29,806 bases of DNA from Deltaproteobacteria bacterium (GTDB taxonomy: Bacteria > Desulfobacterota > Desulfobacteria > Desulfobacterales > ETH-SRB1), in contig JAUWQK010000001.1 of assembly GCA_030611115.1 (NCBI GenBank), forward strand, positions 1 to 29,806. Reading direction: 5' to 3'. Below, piece after piece: positions 5,984 through 26,304 of this stretch; position 1 is the first letter of the stretch; the number at the start of each line of letters is the position of its first letter. A model generated the notes under the pieces. The model saw only the letters and a program-made list of their open reading frames with translations. It ran no database searches and had not been told where the DNA came from. The translations under genes were made by a program, and so were the position numbers.

Positions 5984-7432
5984 ATGACTGAGTTAAATCT
6001 GGTGAATTTAAAACAAAATGCCGGCCTTCTGAGCGCACCCGAAAAATTACAAAAAGGGAAAGCCGGTAAGGACGCAGAGCAGATGATGCCGTTTGTTTGT
6101 GTAATGGGGAAGGCATACCGTGAAACGACACAAAAGACGGAGGGAATTCCACCTGACCCACGCCTCGGCAAAGGGAAGATAGGGGGACGTTCCAATAAAG
6201 GAAATGCGATCAGGCCAGGCGGGGCCTTTAATATAGACCAGGAAAATAATATTCTGAGCGAAGGGAAGGGTAAAACGGATCAATCGCTACCAATAAAAAG
6301 CAAGGGAACAAAAATAAATAAATCATTTTCCGGTAAGATTGTTTTGTTATCGAAAAAAGATAGCCAAAATCAAACTCAAGGAGAAGTTAAAGATTTGCAG
6401 AGAAGCAGTGGCCTTAAAAAAAGCAAAACCGAAAGAATAAACCCTGTCTTGACCGGAGATGCCAAGGGGCCGCTGAAACCTATATTGAACAAACAAAACA
6501 TTGAATCCGGGCTGACGAAGTCAGGATTAATCAAAGCGGTTGTCGAAAAAAAGGAGACTCCGGTACGTGTAGGGATCGATGCCCTCATCGATCCGACTAA
6601 GAAACAGGCGCTCTATTCAGGTGTCGGGAATAAAAAGGGCGCTCCCCCTGTCTTCAAGGAGAATGCCCCGGGGTTTTTGAAGACCGGTTTGCAGAATGCG
6701 GTTGCTGTGAAAGGAAAGAATGCCGTAGAGCCTGACAAAACAGAAAAAAATGCTTTTATGCTCACAAAAAACGATAGCGGCAAAAATGAAATTAAAAATA
6801 TTCTGACTCCCTCGGGTTTTAAGAGTGGAGAGACGATAGAGATTCTTCACAGAGAGACATCGCCACCAGATCGTTCATCTAACAGAGTTTTTTCTGTCGG
6901 AGGATATCATAATACCACTTTTCATTCAGGCGGCGGTTCTACAGCCATTAATGAGAGTGTAAAGAGTCACGCCATAGAACCACGAATTTTGATCAATCGG
7001 ATTGCAGCCGGCGTGAAGAGACCCGGGAGGATAAGAATTACGCTCAATCCACCCCGTCTGGGCACACTTGATGTGAATGTACTTGTCAGAAATAATAAAG
7101 TGCATGTTATGCTTCAGTCTGAAAACAATGATGTCAAACAGATATTACAGTCAAATGTGGAAAGTCTCAAAAGCGCTTTTCGCAATCACGGATTGGTTGC
7201 GGATACCATAAATGTATCTGTTCAAGAAAAATCAGGCGGCGCTGATTATGGTGCTAATTATAGATCAGGGCAAAATGAAACATTATTTAAAGAAGGCGGA
7301 AACTGGAAAGGGAACCAAGAAGATCATGGGGAGGGACAAAATTCTGTAAACCCTGACTCCATATCGCTTAAGGAAGAAAACCCGCTCGACTGGAGTGATG
7401 AGCATGGCGGGCGTGTCAGTTTATTTGCTTAA
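5984..7432 (+). CDS. fliK: Flagellar hook-length control protein FliK
   Basis: FliK is the exported ruler that stops hook growth and switches FlhB to filament export. The first ~330 residues are Lys/Asn/Gly/Ser-rich, low-complexity and without clear domains, as usual for the ruler part. The C-terminal Flg_hook domain is clear at about residues 335-415, including GRIRITLNPPRLGTLDVNV, VHVMLQSENNDVKQIL and SLKSAFRNHGLVADTINV. It is followed by a polar tail. Position just before flgD and flgE fits. The only purine-rich ribosome site (AAAGGA at 5962-5967) is 16 bases from the ATG, so initiation may be weak. Confidence 0.93.
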   Translation: MTELNLVNLKQNAGLLSAPEKLQKGKAGKDAEQMMPFVCVMGKAYRETTQKTEGIPPDPRLGKGKIGGRSNKGNAIRPGGAFNIDQENNILSEGKGKTDQSLPIKSKGTKINKSFSGKIVLLSKKDSQNQTQGEVKDLQRSSGLKKSKTERINPVLTGDAKGPLKPILNKQNIESGLTKSGLIKAVVEKKETPVRVGIDALIDPTKKQALYSGVGNKKGAPPVFKENAPGFLKTGLQNAVAVKGKNAVEPDKTEKNAFMLTKNDSGKNEIKNILTPSGFKSGETIEILHRETSPPDRSSNRVFSVGGYHNTTFHSGGGSTAINESVKSHAIEPRILINRIAAGVKRPGRIRITLNPPRLGTLDVNVLVRNNKVHVMLQSENNDVKQILQSNVESLKSAFRNHGLVADTINVSVQEKSGGADYGANYRSGQNETLFKEGGNWKGNQEDHGEGQNSVNPDSISLKEENPLDWSDEHGGRVSLFA

Positions 7433-9690: not shown

Positions 9691-9728
9691 TACCCAGGTT
9701 CATGGTTCAAGGACTATGAACCTGGGTA
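9691..9728. repeat. 13-bp inverted repeat after flgE
   Basis: TACCCAGGTTCAT (9691-9703) pairs perfectly with ATGAACCTGGGTA (9716-9728) around a 12-base loop. No T-run follows, so it is not a classic terminator. It could be an RNA processing or stability hairpin at the end of the hook operon, or a member of the dispersed repeat set. Confidence 0.75.
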
Positions 9729-10702: not shown

Positions 10703-11389
10703 ATGGAAAATGAATCAAGAAAAAAGGAAAGAAAAAAAGAAGCCGGAGCTGCAGCCTGGGAGGTGATATATTGTTCTCTTGTTCTGATTTTAGTGGCTTT
10801 TTTTGCCATGCTTGTGTCATATTCAAACGTCCAACTGGAAAAAATAAAAAACTTTCGAAAAGAAAAGGTGTTTGTCTCGAAAAACAGTACGCCGGGCAGC
10901 GACACACTGAATCTCTCGCCGGATATTCTGAAAGATCCTGACGGAATCGTGATACAGACCATGAAATCCTTAAAGACATATTTGACACAGGCAGGTCTGG
11001 ATAATTCGGTCAACATCGAAAAGAGCCGGAAAGGATTTAAAGTTACCTTTGGAAGCAATGTATTGTTTTCATCAGGAAAGGCTGAAATAAATAAAGATGC
11101 CTGTTCTTATCTTGATGAGATGATAAAAATAACGCGAAACAACCCTTTTTCTATAAGGGTGGAAGGTCATACTGATAGTGTTTCGATAAACACTCCCGAG
11201 TTTCCGTCGAACTGGGAACTCTCGACAACCCGGGCGGTCAATATCCTGCGGTATCTCCTTGAGAAGGGAGAACTTCCAGAGGAGAGACTGGCCGCAGTCG
11301 GATTCAGCCAGTATCATCCGATCGCGTCAAATGACGTTTCTGAAGGCAGACAGAAAAACAGGAGGGTTGACTTTTATTTTGAACTATAA
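10703..11389 (+). CDS. MotB-type OmpA protein lacking the channel Asp
   Basis: The protein has one N-terminal membrane helix (about residues 19-38) and a C-terminal OmpA/MotB peptidoglycan-binding domain (IRVEGHTDSVSINTPEF, SNWELSTTRAVN, RVDFYF). It resembles MotB, but the helix reads AWEVIYCSLVLILVAFFAML: aligned on the W and Y, the position of the proton-binding Asp (D32 in E. coli MotB) is S25, and no Asp or Glu lies within the helix after E20. The second gene downstream does keep the Asp. It may be a structural partner of the stator rather than an ion carrier. The bases before the ATG (tcttctggcttctgat) resemble a dispersed repeat word, and a ribosome site is only present far upstream. 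Confidence 0.88.
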   Translation: MENESRKKERKKEAGAAAWEVIYCSLVLILVAFFAMLVSYSNVQLEKIKNFRKEKVFVSKNSTPGSDTLNLSPDILKDPDGIVIQTMKSLKTYLTQAGLDNSVNIEKSRKGFKVTFGSNVLFSSGKAEINKDACSYLDEMIKITRNNPFSIRVEGHTDSVSINTPEFPSNWELSTTRAVNILRYLLEKGELPEERLAAVGFSQYHPIASNDVSEGRQKNRRVDFYFEL

Positions 11390-11409: not shown

Positions 11410-12141
11410 ATGAAAAACAAGCATGAAGATTCAGAAGATGATGGAGGAAAATGGCTCACAACCTTCAATGATATGGTGACACTACTGCTTACATTCCTGA
11501 TTTTAGTCCTTTCTCTTTCAGCAACCGATGAATCTAAACTGGAAAAGGTATCCTATGCGATGAGAGCTGTATTTGATACACCGATAATAGAAAAAGAGAA
11601 GATAACGATTTTTACACCTTTTGTTATTCCTATGATAAATAAGACCATGATGTTTGAAAATAAAAAGAGAAAATTGGCCGAGCGTATAAACAAAGCGGCG
11701 GAAATGACCGCAAGAGTGACCGGAGATGGAGCTTCTGCCGGCTCTGAAGGCATAATGAATGTAAAACTAATAAATGAGGGGGTTTCCGTTACCCTGGGGG
11801 AAAATCTGTTGTTCAAGACGAGTATGGCCGAAATTGAAGAAAAAAATCGGCCTACCCTTAAGTTACTCAGTTCTGTTTTTCAAAAAACCGATACCCGGAT
11901 AAGGGTAGAGGGACATACGGATAATGTTCCGATAAATACTCCCGAATTTCCGTCGAATTGGGAACTGTCAACAGCCAGGGCCGTGAATGTTGTCAAATAT
12001 TTTATTTCCGAAGGCGGTATTCTCCCGGAAAGGCTCTCTGCGGCAGGTTATGCAGACTCAAGACCACTTTTCCAGAATGTGAGCGATTACAACAGGAGCA
12101 TCAACAGGAGGGTAGAGGTTATTTTAGCATTAAAGGAATAG
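11410..12141 (+). CDS. motB: Flagellar stator protein MotB
   Basis: MotB anchors the stator to peptidoglycan and provides the ion-binding Asp. The helix reads WLTTFNDMVTLLLTFLILVL with D21 in the expected place. The C-terminal OmpA domain (IRVEGHTDNVPINTPEF, SNWELSTARAVN, NRRVEVIL) is complete. The OmpA domain is close to that of the preceding gene, including at the DNA level around the INTPEFPSNWELST segment, so the pair looks like a tandem duplication. The 20-base spacing to the upstream gene suggests co-transcription with motA. Whether protons or sodium drive it cannot be read safely here. Confidence 0.95.
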   Translation: MKNKHEDSEDDGGKWLTTFNDMVTLLLTFLILVLSLSATDESKLEKVSYAMRAVFDTPIIEKEKITIFTPFVIPMINKTMMFENKKRKLAERINKAAEMTARVTGDGASAGSEGIMNVKLINEGVSVTLGENLLFKTSMAEIEEKNRPTLKLLSSVFQKTDTRIRVEGHTDNVPINTPEFPSNWELSTARAVNVVKYFISEGGILPERLSAAGYADSRPLFQNVSDYNRSINRRVEVILALKE

Positions 12142-16499: not shown

Positions 16500-16566
16500 G
16501 ACAGGGATCGGGGGTCAGGGGACAGGAATCAGACAGGTTTCAGGGATTATAGATCCCTGAAACCTG
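16500..16566. repeat. Repeat block with perfect 14-bp hairpin before flhB
   Basis: Direct words (cagggatcgggggtcagggg, acaggaatcag) lead into a perfect inverted repeat: CAGGTTTCAGGGAT (16534-16547) and ATCCCTGAAACCTG (16553-16566), loop TATAG. There is no T-run, so it is not a typical terminator. The flhB ATG is 13 bases after the stem and has no Shine-Dalgarno. The word CAGGGATC is shared with the palindrome in flhF. Confidence 0.8.
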
Positions 16567-17652: not shown

Positions 17653-19737
17653 ATGGCGGATTCTTACGTTAAAACCAGCAGTTTTGTCGATCTGTTTAAA
17701 GGCAGAACTACAGTGATGGCCATGGGAATAGCAGGTATTCTTCTGGTGATGATGATACCCATGCATCCCTTTTTTCTCGACATTCTTCTCTCTGTCAGCA
17801 TCACTTTTTCTCTGATTATACTATTGCTTTCCGTTTATGTGACAAAACCTCTCGATTTTTCCGTTTTTCCATCCACCCTTTTAATCGCCACTTTGTTTCG
17901 TTTGTCCCTTAATGTGGCTTCCACACGTCTTATACTTCTCCATGGCAATGAGGGTACAGGGGCCGCAGGACAAGTTATAAAAGCATTCGGCGCCTTTGTT
18001 GTCGGCGGCAATTATGTGGTTGGATTTATCGTATTCCTGGTACTCGTCCTGATTAATTTTATTGTGATAACCAAGGGGGCTACAAGGATAGCCGAAGTGG
18101 CCGCAAGATTCACCCTGGACGCGATGCCCGGAAAACAGATGAGCATTGACGCCGATCTTAATGCAGGGGTGATTACAGATGCAGAGGCGAGAAGAAGACG
18201 GCACGAAATTGAGCTGGAATCAAATTTTTATGGTGCAATGGATGGGGCGGGCAAGTTCGTCAGGGGAGATGCAATCGCGGGAATTTTTATTGCCATGATA
18301 AATATTCTCGGCGGTTTGATTGTCGGCGTGCTACAGCAGGGCATGTCGGTGGCGGATGCTGCTCACGTTTATACTCTTCTTACGGTAGGTGACGGGCTGG
18401 TAACGCAGATTCCGGCGCTGATTGTATCGACTGCTACGGGCATGCTTGTTTCCAGGTCTACAGCCTCATCTGATCTGGGCAAGGAGATGGGAGAGCAACT
18501 CTTTGCCCAGCCAAAGGTGATTGGCACGGCTTCGGTTATACTTTTGATATTTGGTTTGATTCCCGGTATGCCCAAGATCTCTTTTCTGATGATCGCTCTT
18601 ATTTTGGGAGTTGTTGCGTATAAAACATTTAAATCGCTACAAAAAATCGAAGAGGCAAAGGAGGAACCGCCGGCACAAGCGGCTGAAGAACACATAGAAG
18701 CCCTCCTGCCCCTTGATTCCCTTGAGCTTGAGGTGGGATACAGCCTAGTGCCCCTCGTTGATACCGGACAAGGCGGAGAGTTGCTTGAAAGAATCAAGGC
18801 CCTGAGAAGGCAGATGACCGTTGAAATGGGCTTTGTCATGCCGCCAATACATATAAGAGACAACCTGCAGATAAAGCCCGGTGAATATATTGTCAAACTG
18901 AAAGGTGTTGAGGCGGCTAAAGGAGAAATACACATAGGTCATTGTCTGGCAATAACTGCAGGAATTGAAGGCCCAAAAATAACGGGGATTAAGGCGACGG
19001 AGCCCGCCTTCGGCCTGCCCGCCGTCTGGATAGACGAAAAAGAAAAAGAATCTGTTCAGGCAAAGGGTTTTGTTGTTGTCGATCCGGCCACCGTTATTAC
19101 GACCCATTTGACTGAAATTATAAAAATGTATGCAGATGAACTGCTGGGCAGGCAGGACGTTCAGTCTTTGCTGGATAGTCTGGCGGGCAGCCATCCTAAG
19201 GTTGTAGAGGAGCTAGTTCCGAATGTCGTTCCGCTCGGCACGCTTCAGAAGGTGCTGCAAAGGCTCCTGAGGGAGAGAATTTCTATTCGCGACATCCTCA
19301 CGATACTGGAAGCACTGGCGGATTATATGCCTATGACAAAAAATATTGATATGTTAACCGGATATGCAAGGCAGGCCCTGGCTAGGACGATAACAGGAGA
19401 ATATAAGGATGCGGATGGGAACATAACGGTTGTTATGGTCTCTCCCGACATTGAGGACAGCATTAATAAATCTGTTCAGCATACGGAATATGAATCATTC
19501 GTTGCGGCTGACCCCACTCTGATACAGGAGGTTGTAAGTAATCTCCAGGAATTTATCAAAACCTTTACCGGCAAAGGTCTACAGCCGGTTATTCTCTGTT
19601 CACCCAATGTCAGGATACACTTAAGGAAGATATTAGAGAAATTTTTCCCCAATATCATTGTCCTCTCCCATAATGAAATTACCCGTGATGTAAATATCAA
19701 ATCTCTGGGCATGCTGGCGGCAAAAGATGCAGATTAA
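17653..19737 (+). CDS. flhA: Flagellar export gate protein FlhA
   Basis: FlhA is the large export gate protein whose cytoplasmic nonamer docks chaperone-substrate complexes. About eight membrane helices occupy the first ~330 residues, with the FHIPEP-family cytoplasmic loop (ARFTLDAMPGKQMSIDADLN, AEARRRRHEIELESNFYGAM). The long cytoplasmic domain ends with the flexible-linker and ring motifs (DYMPMTKNIDMLTGYARQAL). 694 residues is usual. It overlaps flhF by 11 bases. Confidence 0.98.
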   Translation: MADSYVKTSSFVDLFKGRTTVMAMGIAGILLVMMIPMHPFFLDILLSVSITFSLIILLLSVYVTKPLDFSVFPSTLLIATLFRLSLNVASTRLILLHGNEGTGAAGQVIKAFGAFVVGGNYVVGFIVFLVLVLINFIVITKGATRIAEVAARFTLDAMPGKQMSIDADLNAGVITDAEARRRRHEIELESNFYGAMDGAGKFVRGDAIAGIFIAMINILGGLIVGVLQQGMSVADAAHVYTLLTVGDGLVTQIPALIVSTATGMLVSRSTASSDLGKEMGEQLFAQPKVIGTASVILLIFGLIPGMPKISFLMIALILGVVAYKTFKSLQKIEEAKEEPPAQAAEEHIEALLPLDSLELEVGYSLVPLVDTGQGGELLERIKALRRQMTVEMGFVMPPIHIRDNLQIKPGEYIVKLKGVEAAKGEIHIGHCLAITAGIEGPKITGIKATEPAFGLPAVWIDEKEKESVQAKGFVVVDPATVITTHLTEIIKMYADELLGRQDVQSLLDSLAGSHPKVVEELVPNVVPLGTLQKVLQRLLRERISIRDILTILEALADYMPMTKNIDMLTGYARQALARTITGEYKDADGNITVVMVSPDIEDSINKSVQHTEYESFVAADPTLIQEVVSNLQEFIKTFTGKGLQPVILCSPNVRIHLRKILEKFFPNIIVLSHNEITRDVNIKSLGMLAAKDAD

Positions 19738-20974
19738 AAGATATGAGGCGCAAAGCACAAAGGAGGCTATAAAGAAAATAAAGGCGGATCTCGGTTCGGA
19801 TGCCATAGTCCTTTCCAGCAAAAGGCTGAATGGCAAACTTGAAGTGCTTGCTGCCAAGGATGATAATAATGGAATTCTGAAAGAAAGTGACGTTGGAAAA
19901 GAGGAAAAAGAGGAAAAAGAGGAAATAGATACATTCTCTATAATCAGATCAGAGGTTAGTGAGTTGAAGTCCCTCATCATGGGTTTCAAAAAGGAAAGAG
20001 GTATTCATGCCGAACTGGCTGAATTAAAGGAGACAATGAATGTCTTGTTTGATGTTCTTGGCGTTCAAAGGAATGGAAGAGTTTCTTCTCCTCTGTCAAA
20101 GGTTTATTATCATCTGATTTCAATCGGCGTATCAAAGGAGCGAGCGTGTGGATTAATAGAGAAATTGAAGACCGATGGCTCGACGGCCGAACCGGCGAAC
20201 TATTATCATGCTCTGAACGCCGCTGAGGATATGATAAAGAACTCTATCGCCTCTTCTTACAGGAATGTGGAAAAAAAGAGGATTTCCGCTTTTGTCGGTC
20301 CCGCCGGCGAGGGGAAAACGACAACTCTGGCAAAGCTGGCCGCTCGCTGTTTATTCGAAGAGAGTTTGACTGTGGGTATCATAACGATGGATACATATCG
20401 GATAGGCGCGGCTGAACAACTGAAGACATACGCGGATATCATGGATATCCCCGTGGAGATTGCATCTGAAAAGAAGGAGTTCGATAGGGCTTTGAACAAG
20501 TTTTCCAACAAAGATATTATATTGGTGGATACGCCGGGCAAGAGTAGTGGTGATGAAAAATATTTGTTGAAATTAAAGGAATTTCTTGAGCCGGATACTT
20601 CCATGGAAACGAATCTTGTTTTAAGCATGACATCAAGCCGGGAGAGCATGATGGATGTAGTGACAAGATTCGGCATTATAGATTATAGCAGTATCATATT
20701 TACAAAATTGGATGATTCAAGGAAATCCGGTTCAATCTACAATGTTATGGACCATACCGGAAAACCAGTATTTTATGTCGCCGATGGGCAGAACGTTCCC
20801 CGTGATTTAAAAAAAATGGATCCCGCAAAGCTTGCAAGGCTGATAGTGGGCCAGGGATCAGGAGCCAGGGCTAACTTGTTAACCCTGACTCCTGATCCCT
20901 GTAAAGGAGATAATGGTGGATCAGGCAGGAGTGTTGAGAGAAATGAAGACAAGTGTGATGCCTTCGTCAATTAG
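19727..20974 (+). CDS. flhF: Flagellar placement GTPase FlhF
   Basis: FlhF is the SRP-type GTPase that marks the pole for flagellar assembly. The N-terminal MQIKRYEAQSTKEAIKKIKA is typical, followed by an acidic linker, an N-domain helical bundle, and the G domain: P-loop FVGPAGEGKTTTLAKLA near residue 190, DTYRIGAAEQLKTYADIM, ILVDTPGKSSGDE (usual DTAGRS reads DTPGKS), and FTKLDDSRKSGSIYNV. After LARLIVG the last ~35 residues are encoded by a 50-base palindrome and the start of flhG, so this C-terminus is an oddity: the gene overlaps flhG by 62 bases. Confidence 0.96.
   Translation: MQIKRYEAQSTKEAIKKIKADLGSDAIVLSSKRLNGKLEVLAAKDDNNGILKESDVGKEEKEEKEEIDTFSIIRSEVSELKSLIMGFKKERGIHAELAELKETMNVLFDVLGVQRNGRVSSPLSKVYYHLISIGVSKERACGLIEKLKTDGSTAEPANYYHALNAAEDMIKNSIASSYRNVEKKRISAFVGPAGEGKTTTLAKLAARCLFEESLTVGIITMDTYRIGAAEQLKTYADIMDIPVEIASEKKEFDRALNKFSNKDIILVDTPGKSSGDEKYLLKLKEFLEPDTSMETNLVLSMTSSRESMMDVVTRFGIIDYSSIIFTKLDDSRKSGSIYNVMDHTGKPVFYVADGQNVPRDLKKMDPAKLARLIVGQGSGARANLLTLTPDPCKGDNGGSGRSVERNEDKCDAFVN
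20852..20901. repeat. 50-base near-perfect palindrome within the flhF 3' end
   Basis: A left arm (20852-20875, starting CAGGGATCAGGAG and ending CTAAC) and a right arm (20878-20901, starting GTTAACCCTG and ending CTCCTGATCCCTG) pair over 24 bases with only two mismatches and two spacer bases. It lies in frame inside flhF and ends 11 bases before the flhG ATG. It shares the words CAGGGATC and TGATCCCTG with gaps before fliI and flhB. It has no T-run after it. Confidence 0.9.
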
Positions 20975-21797
20975 GCAAAAAAGGCACAACGGTAATACCC
21001 GCGTCATTGCCATTACCAGCGGCAAGGGGGGCGTCGGGAAAACAAATATATCGGCAAACTTTGCGTATCTTCTTTCGAAGATGGGAAAAAGAACTTTGCT
21101 GCTTGATGCGGACGCCGGGCTGGCCAATATAGATGTCATTTTGGGTATTACCCCAAAATATAACCTGCACCACGTTCTTAGCGGCGAAAAAAACCTGTCG
21201 GAGGCCGTTGTCGAGGGTCCGGGGGGGGTTAAAATTTTGCCGGCATCCTCGGGAATTCCAGAGATGGCTTCGCTGTCAAAAGGGCAGAAATTTACTCTTC
21301 TCGAAGAACTGGACGGACTGGATGAAGACTTCGATTTTATGCTTATCGACACAGCCGCAGGAATTGCCGACAACGTCATGTATTTTAATATGGTAGCCGG
21401 GGAAATTATTGTGGTTGCTTCACCTGAGCCCACATCTTTGACAGATGCCTATGCCTTAATCAAAGTGCTTTATCAGGGTTACGCGGCAAGACGATTTATG
21501 CTGCTTGTCAACATGGCCGAAGATTCAAATGAGGCCGAAGGGGTTTACACGAGATTGAGCAACGCGACGAATCAGTTCCTTGATCTTCCAATTGAGTATC
21601 TTGGATATATCCCTCGTGATCAGAATGTTTCAAAAGCGGTGAGAAAACAAAAATTGTTGTCAGAGGTCTTCCCTGATTCAAAGGCAAGCAAAAGCATGTC
21701 TGAAGTTGTCGAAAAGCTGTGCCGAAAGCAGCCGGGAAATTATAAAAATGGTACCATTAAATTCTTTGACAGGTCTATCATTGACAAAAATGACTGA
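20913..21797 (+). CDS. flhG: Flagellar number regulator FlhG (FleN), MinD-like ATPase
   Basis: FlhG is the ParA/MinD-type ATPase that limits flagellar number and works with FlhF. It has a short N-terminal lead, the deviant Walker A AITSGKGGVGKTNISANFA at about residues 33-51, LLLDADAGLANIDVILG, the switch DFMLIDTAAGIADNVMY, and PEPTSLTDAYALIKVL. The lead (residues ~14-26, SVMPSSIRQKRHN) may hold the FlhF-activating segment. ATG 20913 is chosen because AAAGGAG sits 5 bases upstream; this places the first 62 bases inside flhF. It overlaps fliA by 8 bases. Confidence 0.97.
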   Translation: MVDQAGVLREMKTSVMPSSIRQKRHNGNTRVIAITSGKGGVGKTNISANFAYLLSKMGKRTLLLDADAGLANIDVILGITPKYNLHHVLSGEKNLSEAVVEGPGGVKILPASSGIPEMASLSKGQKFTLLEELDGLDEDFDFMLIDTAAGIADNVMYFNMVAGEIIVVASPEPTSLTDAYALIKVLYQGYAARRFMLLVNMAEDSNEAEGVYTRLSNATNQFLDLPIEYLGYIPRDQNVSKAVRKQKLLSEVFPDSKASKSMSEVVEKLCRKQPGNYKNGTIKFFDRSIIDKND

Positions 21798-26081: not shown

Positions 26082-26304
26082 AAGTTCAGAGATGAAAGTT
26101 TATAGGACACCACCCTACTACCTCTACAAAAGACCTGCCCGAACGGGAAAAATTTTCCCCAGTAGATCAAATTTGCCTGCTGGAAGGTTAAAACAGTCAT
26201 AACTTTTCACAGTTCAGGGTTCCCTCGTTCCCACGCTCCTTCCTGAGTGGGAATGTGTAATATCAACTGCTTAACGACATCCCGATCTCTGGCCTTCGCC
26301 CATA
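26082..26304. other. Non-coding gap with repeat words before flgF promoter
   Basis: The first part (gttgaaagttcagagatgaaagttt) is a loose direct repeat. No convincing reading frame continues. An inverted repeat TTCCCAC (26228-26234) / GTGGGAA (26247-26253) sits within a CTCGTTCCCACGCTCC word of the kind found as dispersed intergenic repeats in many environmental genomes. The sigma-54 promoter follows. Confidence 0.6.
26225..26255. repeat. CGTTCCCACGCTCC-type inverted repeat
   Basis: Seven-base arms TTCCCAC and GTGGGAA are separated by 12 bases. The arms and flanks (TCGTTCCCACGCTCC, GAGTGGGAATG) resemble a widely seen intergenic repeat word, not previously present elsewhere in this window. 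Confidence 0.55.

What the first reader, a model, noticed from the sequence alone, without database searches (positions are those of the whole stretch)
20852..20974. A 50-base palindrome encodes the FlhF C-terminus and pushes flhF into flhG
Seen: two 24-base arms with two mismatches and a 2-base centre lie in frame at the end of flhF; the flhF frame then runs 62 bases into flhG. The FlhF core ends around LARLIVG, directly before the palindrome. Inference: a mobile palindromic repeat landed at the original flhF stop, adding a tail and creating the flhF/flhG overlap. A hairpin here sits 11 bases before the flhG start and could set the FlhF:FlhG ratio, which controls flagellar number.
Basis: partly seen in the sequence, partly recalled or inferred. 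Interest (0 to 1): 0.72.

Follow-up and report, generated by a model that had tools for sequence, protein, structure and literature searches.

The report
Short-repeat hairpin at flhF-flhG junction
The palindrome at the end of flhF is real, and it is one of many hairpins built from 7-9-letter repeats that turn up, in different versions, at gene junctions of related uncultured bacteria; it lengthens the FlhF protein, but nothing here shows that it controls flagellar number.

Summary
The palindrome (20852-20901; 24-nt arms, 22 of 24 complementary, 2-nt loop) and the 62-nt flhF/flhG overlap are confirmed; 50 Markov-simulated windows held no hairpin this strong. Each arm is three degenerate heptamers (CAGGNNT); a second array of that unit lies at 16502-16566. 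Relatives place it in a class: inverted arrays of degenerate 7-9-mers, mostly intergenic, rare at divergent junctions. Among 33 orthologous flagellar junctions 25 hold an array in some close relative or the window; of 16 filled in two or more genomes, 15 carry more than one unit family, so arrays are gained and replaced repeatedly. flhF-flhG is filled in 7 of 11. FlhF tails past LARLIVG are accordingly hypervariable. The overlap is not tied to the palindrome: L002 overlaps without it, L001 has it without overlap; L002 differs from the window by 45 nt between two AGGAG repeats. The predicted hairpin leaves the window's flhG Shine-Dalgarno open, and three relatives lack it, so FlhF:FlhG ratio control is unsupported. 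The same architecture was described in Geobacter metallireducens (PMC2700814) as putative regulator sites. New member of a known, poorly understood kind; the junction-by-junction replacement is the interesting part.

The parts
20852..20875 (+). left arm: three degenerate heptamers CAGGGAT-CAGGAGC-CAGGGCT plus AAC
   Evidence: period 7
20878..20901 (+). right arm, reverse complement of the same units, 22 of 24 paired
20860..20909 (+). two AGGAG direct repeats (20860-20864 and 20905-20909), 45 nt apart; the L002 arrangement lacks one repeat and the stretch between
   Evidence: compare L002
19727..20974 (+). flhF (SRP54-type GTPase domain), core ends LARLIVG at about 20851; tail encoded by the palindrome and then by the start of flhG
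20903..20909 (+). Shine-Dalgarno AAAGGAG of flhG, one base after the right arm and inside flhF
20913..21797 (+). flhG (MinD/ParA-type ATPase); conserved start probably GTG 20916
16502..16566 (+). second array of the same CAGGNNT unit at the junction of the genes taken as fliR and flhB, ending in a 14-nt perfect hairpin (16534-16547 / 16553-16566)
   Evidence: not called by the stricter criterion
9691..9728 (+). hairpin of GGTTCAT/GGTTCAA units just after the stop of the gene taken as flgE; probably the same kind, too short to be called periodic

Best explanation
The palindrome is one copy of a junction-colonising class: two facing arrays of a degenerate 7-9-nt unit that fold into one hairpin. 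Such arrays are gained, replaced and lost at gene junctions of this bacterial group without an obvious role for the individual gene pair. At flhF-flhG the array sits between the last conserved flhF codons and the flhG Shine-Dalgarno. FlhF's C-terminus tolerates many tails, so each array is translated until its first in-frame stop; array length modulo 3 decides whether FlhF ends in the array or runs into flhG. In the window's mRNA the hairpin is predicted to form just before the flhG Shine-Dalgarno and to leave it open; ribosomes finishing flhF would melt it. Shown: anatomy, dispersal in relatives, replacement at orthologous junctions, variable tails. Inferred: tolerance rather than function, melting by ribosomes, and an unidentified multiplication mechanism.
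For: The same junction in relatives holds CAGG-type 7-mer arrays (window, L001, L003, L005, L006), GGTTAGAA-type 8-mer arrays (L007, L008, L009) or nothing (L002, L010, L083). 800 kb of G009: 134 hairpins of score 16 or more against 2 in one Markov control; 69 of 166 hairpins of score 15 or more are periodic (7-10 nt), 58 of 69 intergenic although intergenic DNA is 16%; of 63 mostly intergenic ones 49 lie between co-directional genes, 12 convergent, 2 divergent, while the 97 non-periodic hairpins give 47, 5 and 13. 33 flagellar junctions in the window and 10 close relatives: 56 arrays, 16 junctions filled in two or more genomes, 15 of these with more than one unit family; same-junction pairs share a family in 13 of 60, different-junction pairs in 157 of 1204. 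False-call rate on shuffled regions 6 of 2620. SD unpaired probability 0.95 in the window, 0.80 in L002 without hairpin.
Against: flhF-flhG is filled in 7 of 11 genomes where per-genome rates predict 2.9 (P 0.0016); this ignores kinship and that the junction was picked beforehand as one of 33, and by fraction flgE-motA (4 of 5) and g29-flgF (4 of 6) are filled more often, but selection there is not excluded. SD openness varies: L003 0.26 and L008 0.30 in filled sites, but also L010 0.21 and L083 0.36 in empty ones. No target duplication proven, no enzyme and no transposition event seen. No genome is held for the window itself.
Confidence: 0.72

Rival explanations
1. A regulatory RNA hairpin that tunes translation of flhG relative to flhF and so flagellar number.
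For: Stable hairpin ending one base before the flhG Shine-Dalgarno; the junction is filled in 7 of 11 genomes, the largest number of genomes of any junction scanned.
Against: Absent in L002, L010, L083; SD stays open in the window; unit sequence and length of the hairpin differ widely between relatives; similar hairpins sit at many other flagellar junctions.
Confidence: 0.1
2. A REP/REPIN element moved by a RAYT transposase.
For: Hairpin, dispersed, downstream of genes, occasional in-gene copies as described for REPs (PMC3733652); Y1-type transposase genes in 11 of 12 relative genomes.
Against: No GTAG or CGTC tag beside the palindrome; a GTAG after the Shine-Dalgarno in L001, L006 and L007 also stands in empty L010 and L083. 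Of 48 transposase matches the surroundings of 30 were scanned: clear short-unit arrays near 2 (L173, L179), weak ones flagged in L186 and L187, and a different, long hairpin in L180 and L181. Many unrelated unit families in one genome do not fit one enzyme per family.
Confidence: 0.12
3. Binding sites for a nucleoid or global regulator, as proposed for the paired tandem-repeat sites of Geobacter metallireducens.
For: Same architecture: facing sites of 3-5 tandem 7-8-mers at variable distance; class 3 consensus MTYCTGA is the reverse complement of TCAGRAK, close to the unit here.
Against: Fifteen of 16 repeatedly filled junctions change unit family, which a conserved binding site should not allow; few lie at divergent, promoter-bearing junctions (2 of 63).
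Confidence: 0.12
4. Local origin: snap-back or slippage copying of native sequence. The flhG start (GTGGATCAGGCAGGAG) already holds GGATCAGG, which recurs as GGATCAGG in the left arm and, as a second copy, in empty L010 and L083.
For: L010 reads GTGGATCAGGGAGG-TAGTTTC-AGTGGATCAGGCAGG; window and L002 differ by 45 nt between AGGAG repeats.
Against: The same unit occurs at 16502-16566 and many times elsewhere in some relatives; GGTTAGAA-type arrays at the same junction have no local source that I saw.
Confidence: 0.15

Closest known systems
Paired tandem hepta/octanucleotide sites of Geobacter metallireducens (putative global regulator sites, four classes, mostly in pairs; PMC2700814, passages read, figures and supplements not seen)
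   Same: Facing arrays of 3-5 degenerate 7-8-mers at variable distance, several unit families per genome; class 3 unit close to the unit here; the paper also notes that the proBA gap is occupied by a different conserved sequence in G. sulfurreducens
   Different: There read as protein-binding sites; here seen as hairpins that replace each other at orthologous operon junctions and are translated at flhF
REP / REPIN elements with RAYT transposases (PMC3733652, abstract and one section read; PMC3116915, abstract read)
   Same: Dispersed hairpins, mainly 3' of genes and between co-directional or convergent genes, sometimes in frame
   Different: No GTAG/CGTC tag at the window element, arms are internal 7-9-mer arrays, many unit families in the one genome studied, no clear RAYT linkage in the loci scanned
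Rickettsial palindromic elements (RPE; mentioned in the section of PMC3733652 read, otherwise recalled)
   Same: Palindrome translated in frame inside a protein gene
   Different: RPEs are defined sequence families of Rickettsia; here the element lies at a C-terminus and its sequence type varies between relatives

Membership tests
Paired tandem 7-8-mer sites (Geobacter type) | two facing arrays of short tandem units | tested here: met
   three heptamers per arm, period 7 in both arms
Paired tandem 7-8-mer sites (Geobacter type) | multicopy in the genome, between genes and sometimes within them | tested here: inconclusive
   one further array of this unit in the window and many in some relatives; the window's own genome is not held
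Paired tandem 7-8-mer sites (Geobacter type) | bound by a regulator or IHF/HU | not testable with these tools
   a hypothesis in the passages of PMC2700814 read
REP / REPIN | GTAG or CGTC tag at the foot of the hairpin | tested here: not met
   flanks CTGATAGTGGGC and TAAAGGAGATAATGG read directly
REP / REPIN | linked RAYT gene flanked by the repeat | tested here: inconclusive
   tested in relatives only: 30 of 48 Y1-transposase matches scanned, clear short-unit arrays near 2
REP / REPIN | located downstream of genes, rare at divergent junctions | tested here: met
   in G009, 2 of 63 mostly intergenic periodic arrays at divergent junctions
Intrinsic terminator | U-tract directly after a G+C-rich hairpin | tested here: not met
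   right arm is followed by TAAAGGAG
Known Rfam RNA family | match above gathering score | tested here: not met
   0 matches in the window

The most novel reading that the evidence does not exclude
Inverted arrays of 7-9-nt units are a general class of junction-colonising elements with an unknown generating enzyme: the 5' arm is usually purine-rich on both strands, many unit families coexist in one genome, and one family replaces another at the same operon junction. They would keep rewriting protein C-termini and gene overlaps, with flhF-flhG among the favoured sites.
Probability: 0.35. Interest if true: 0.7.

Novelty: new member of a known kind. Interest (0 to 1): 0.42.

Why it matters
It explains a puzzling translated palindrome without invoking flagellar regulation, warns against reading such C-terminal tails and overlaps as functional, and gives a clean comparative system (33 orthologous junctions) in which repeated gain and replacement of short-unit hairpins can be followed. 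If the generating activity were found, a neglected class of bacterial repeats would become explicable.

Tried and rejected
Rejected or without support: intrinsic terminator (no U-tract); Rfam RNA; phage link (an 18-base piece of the arm matched nothing in viral contigs; the FlhF alignment found no relative there); RAYT-driven REPIN; sequestration of the ribosome-binding site. Fixed polarity of unit families in G009, tested by shared 7-mers: 237 same-polarity pairs, 40 opposite, many of the opposite ones from self-dyadic words such as AACGTT or from A/T-rich units, so polarity is a tendency, not a rule; the clustering in that call merged 62 of 69 arrays and gave no family count. Purine fraction of the 5' arm: 58 of 69 periodic arrays above 0.5, 8 below; non-periodic hairpins show a weaker bias of the same sign (60 of 97 above, 33 below).

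Limits of the junction scan: the first version missed the window's flhF-flhG hairpin because the protein alignment ran through it; one search corrected this. One search does not call L003/G003, where a loose, longer hairpin is visible and folds, nor the window's own array at 16502-16566, so the window's 1 of 33 is a low count. A unit family there means at least three shared 6-mers, a loose rule; at least one array so called (G006 at flhB-flhA) looks like a longer non-periodic repeat. Coverage is uneven: some relatives cover only 3 to 15 junctions. L004 ends at the junction and was not used.

Literature: searches returned 0 papers; one search returned 6, none on point by title; two searches listed REP, REPIN and RPE papers; led to the Geobacter paper; one search listed three Geobacter-group papers, of which PMC2996986 was read in passages and PMC3543383 was seen only in the listing.

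Selections: one search returned 40 loci; L001-L010 were treated as close relatives; L011-L016 and L018 were printed. One search covered all 101 loci then held for the end-of-flhF motif; loci without it were not examined further. The tree took 65 of the 120 listed homologs (2693 found); five (P0060, P0061, P0064, P0065, P0066) were dropped by my cutting rule, 60 remained. P0003-P0006 have no DNA here, so their palindrome is inferred from the tail; P0006 is doubtful and counting it raises the palindrome's changes from 3 to 4. The control is one Markov sequence. Gene calls in G009 are crude ORF calls.

Full report
Observation. The palindrome is present as described: arms 20852-20875 and 20878-20901, 22 of 24 complementary, two bases between; flhF 19727-20974 and flhG 20913-21797 overlap by 62 nt. 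Only these two stretches of the window match the arm with up to three mismatches, against none expected. It is the strongest hairpin found in the window and none of 50 Markov-simulated windows reached a score of 18 (it scores 20). The arms are internally repetitive: CAGGGAT, CAGGAGC/T, CAGGGCT/TT, then AAC.

Surroundings. The window is a flagellar cluster. Of ten proteins scanned, Pfam names FliG, FlgD, MotA, FliM, FlhA (FHIPEP), an SRP54-type GTPase (FlhF), a ParA-type ATPase (FlhG), a sigma-70 factor (FliA by position), FliL (24.2 bits, just under its 24.6 cut-off) and nothing for the tenth. Other gene names in my tables (for example fliR, flhB, flgE, motB) come from gene order and recall, not from a call. 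At 16502-16566, between the genes taken as fliR and flhB, lies a second array of the same unit (CAGGGATCGGGGGTCAGGGGACAGGAATCAGACAGGTTTCAGGGAT, loop TATAG, ATCCCTGAAACCTG), and at 9691-9728, after the gene taken as flgE, a hairpin of GGTTCAT/GGTTCAA.

Relatives. A search with FlhF found 2693 homologs, 120 listed. After the conserved LARLIVG the tail is hypervariable among close relatives. P0003, P0004 and P0005 share the palindrome-encoded tail. P0008, P0009, P0010, P0019 and P0020 have the flhG-overlap tail without it. Others have repeat-like tails such as GQESGVRGQESGVTG. DNA of close relatives shows why: the junction holds CAGG-type heptamer arrays in the window, L001, L003, L005 and L006, GGTTAGAA-type octamer arrays in L007, L008 and L009, and nothing in L002, L010 and L083. 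L009 carries in addition a long hairpin of about 150 nt inside the loop. L004 ends at the junction and cannot be judged.

Overlap. L002 overlaps without a palindrome; L001 has the palindrome, but FlhF stops inside its right arm. The window and L002 differ by 45 nt lying between two AGGAG repeats at 20860 and 20905, so either an in-frame insertion with a 5-nt duplication or an in-frame deletion between direct repeats explains the pair. On a tree of 60 FlhF cores the overlap tail needs five changes (starred branches force four) and the palindrome tail three with P0001, P0003, P0004, P0005 and P0007 as carriers, four if doubtful P0006 is counted. Several of the branches concerned are unresolved and the root is a midpoint. 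As drawn, carriers surround the lineages that lack it, which slightly favours loss in the L002 lineage. The overlap is therefore a by-product of junction length, possibly delivered by an array, but not tied to this palindrome.

A class of elements. The window's genome is not held, so copy number was studied in relatives. The 19-nt arm core with up to two mismatches matches in 8 of 12 genomes, up to 31 times (G009; some matches overlap, and some are the flhF-flhG copy itself), and 0 times in the reversed control. In 800 kb of G009 (its locus L009 is titled Desulfobacteraceae bacterium Eth-SRB1) there are 134 hairpins of score 16 or more against 2 in one Markov control, many made of degenerate 7-, 8- or 9-mers of quite different sequence (GAACATC, GTGTTAA, GGCTGAA, CAGGGRT, GGTTCAC, AGAAGGTG, CCACAGAGA and others, read by eye). 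Of 166 hairpins of score 15 or more, 69 are periodic (7-10 nt); 58 of these 69 are intergenic, and 2 of 63 mostly intergenic ones lie at divergent junctions, against 13 of 65 for the non-periodic hairpins. They are dense around the flagellar cluster: 17 of 69 in 750-800 kb, 6% of the sequence. A three-unit TCAGGG pattern is patchy in the phylum: 31 of 198 genomes, 1 to 75 matches; six genomes have matches to the reversed control.

Replacement at orthologous junctions. Gene order is conserved between the window and the relatives compared, so 33 junctions could be followed where contigs reach. With one criterion (hairpin score 13 or more, period 7-9) 6 of 2620 shuffled regions were called. 25 of 33 junctions hold an array in the window or a close relative. 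flhF-flhG is filled in 7 of 11 genomes, window included, the largest number; by fraction flgE-motA (4 of 5) and g29-flgF (4 of 6) are higher, g25-g26 has 4 of 8 and flhG-fliA 4 of 9; the window has 1 of 33, G009 15 of 33, G007 14 of 33. Among 56 arrays, 16 junctions are filled in two or more genomes and 15 of them carry more than one unit family; sharing of a family at the same junction (13 of 60 pairs) is not far above sharing between different junctions (157 of 1204). Arrays are thus mostly gained and replaced rather than inherited; flhF-flhG itself shows two groups, window/G001/G005/G006 and G007/G008/G009. The excess at flhF-flhG (7 against 2.9 expected, P 0.0016) ignores kinship and is not corrected for 33 junctions.

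Function. In the predicted RNA the array folds on itself and leaves the flhG Shine-Dalgarno open in the window (0.95) and L001 (0.93), much as in palindrome-less L002 (0.80). Values elsewhere are L007 0.94, L005 0.81, L006 0.62, L009 0.53, L008 0.30, L003 0.26 (filled) and L083 0.36, L010 0.21 (empty), so openness does not follow presence of a hairpin. Ribosomes translating flhF pass through the hairpin. A specific FlhF:FlhG switch is not supported; a tolerated element is the simplest account, but no experiment bears on it.

What is known. Facing arrays of 3-5 tandem 7-8-mers were described in Geobacter metallireducens as classes of putative global regulator sites, mostly in pairs; class 3 has the consensus MTYCTGA, the reverse complement of TCAGRAK, and the paper notes a different conserved sequence in the proBA gap of G. 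sulfurreducens (PMC2700814, passages). G. [quoted passage not shown] REPs share location but carry GTAG or CGTC tags and, for GTAG REPs, RAYT links (PMC3733652, abstract and one section); no tag is at the window element, and RAYT linkage could be tested only in relatives. Searches of the open library showed no description of family replacement at orthologous junctions; most subscription papers and the supplements of the Geobacter papers were not available, so this is weak evidence of newness.

Noticed in passing
window 26224-26256 (junction before the gene taken as flgF): A CTCGTTCCCACGCTC...GAGTGGGAATG hairpin-like repeat; G003 has a CTCGTTCCCACGC hairpin at the same junction and G009 has similar ones elsewhere.
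   Followed up: no
L009 (about 7180-7330): A roughly 150-nt hairpin with GCTCAAAAATAA ends lies inside the loop of the octamer array at flhF-flhG; similar elements occur in the same contig (G009 C1 about 728 kb and 851 kb), so one repeat seems nested in another.
   Followed up: partly
L180 891-985 and L181 302-400: A near-perfect hairpin of 31-35-nt arms (ATGGGGTCAGGTCTTGCGTTTTGCC) in loci fetched for Y1-transposase matches of G003 and G004, looking like a true REPIN with its RAYT.
   Followed up: no
G009 C1 750-800 kb: Short-unit inverted arrays are about five times denser around the flagellar cluster than in the rest of the 800 kb read (17 in 50 kb against 52 in 750 kb).
   Followed up: partly
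window 11153-11242 and 11899-11988: Two 90-nt stretches 83% identical in neighbouring ORFs, pointing to a tandem duplication, perhaps of a MotB/OmpA-like gene (name by position only).
   Followed up: no
L001, L002: Flagellar contigs of these two MAGs carry FlhF about 81% identical to the window while the listed best matches of the other genomes in their family are about 28-40%, so the contigs may be binning contaminants.
   Followed up: partly
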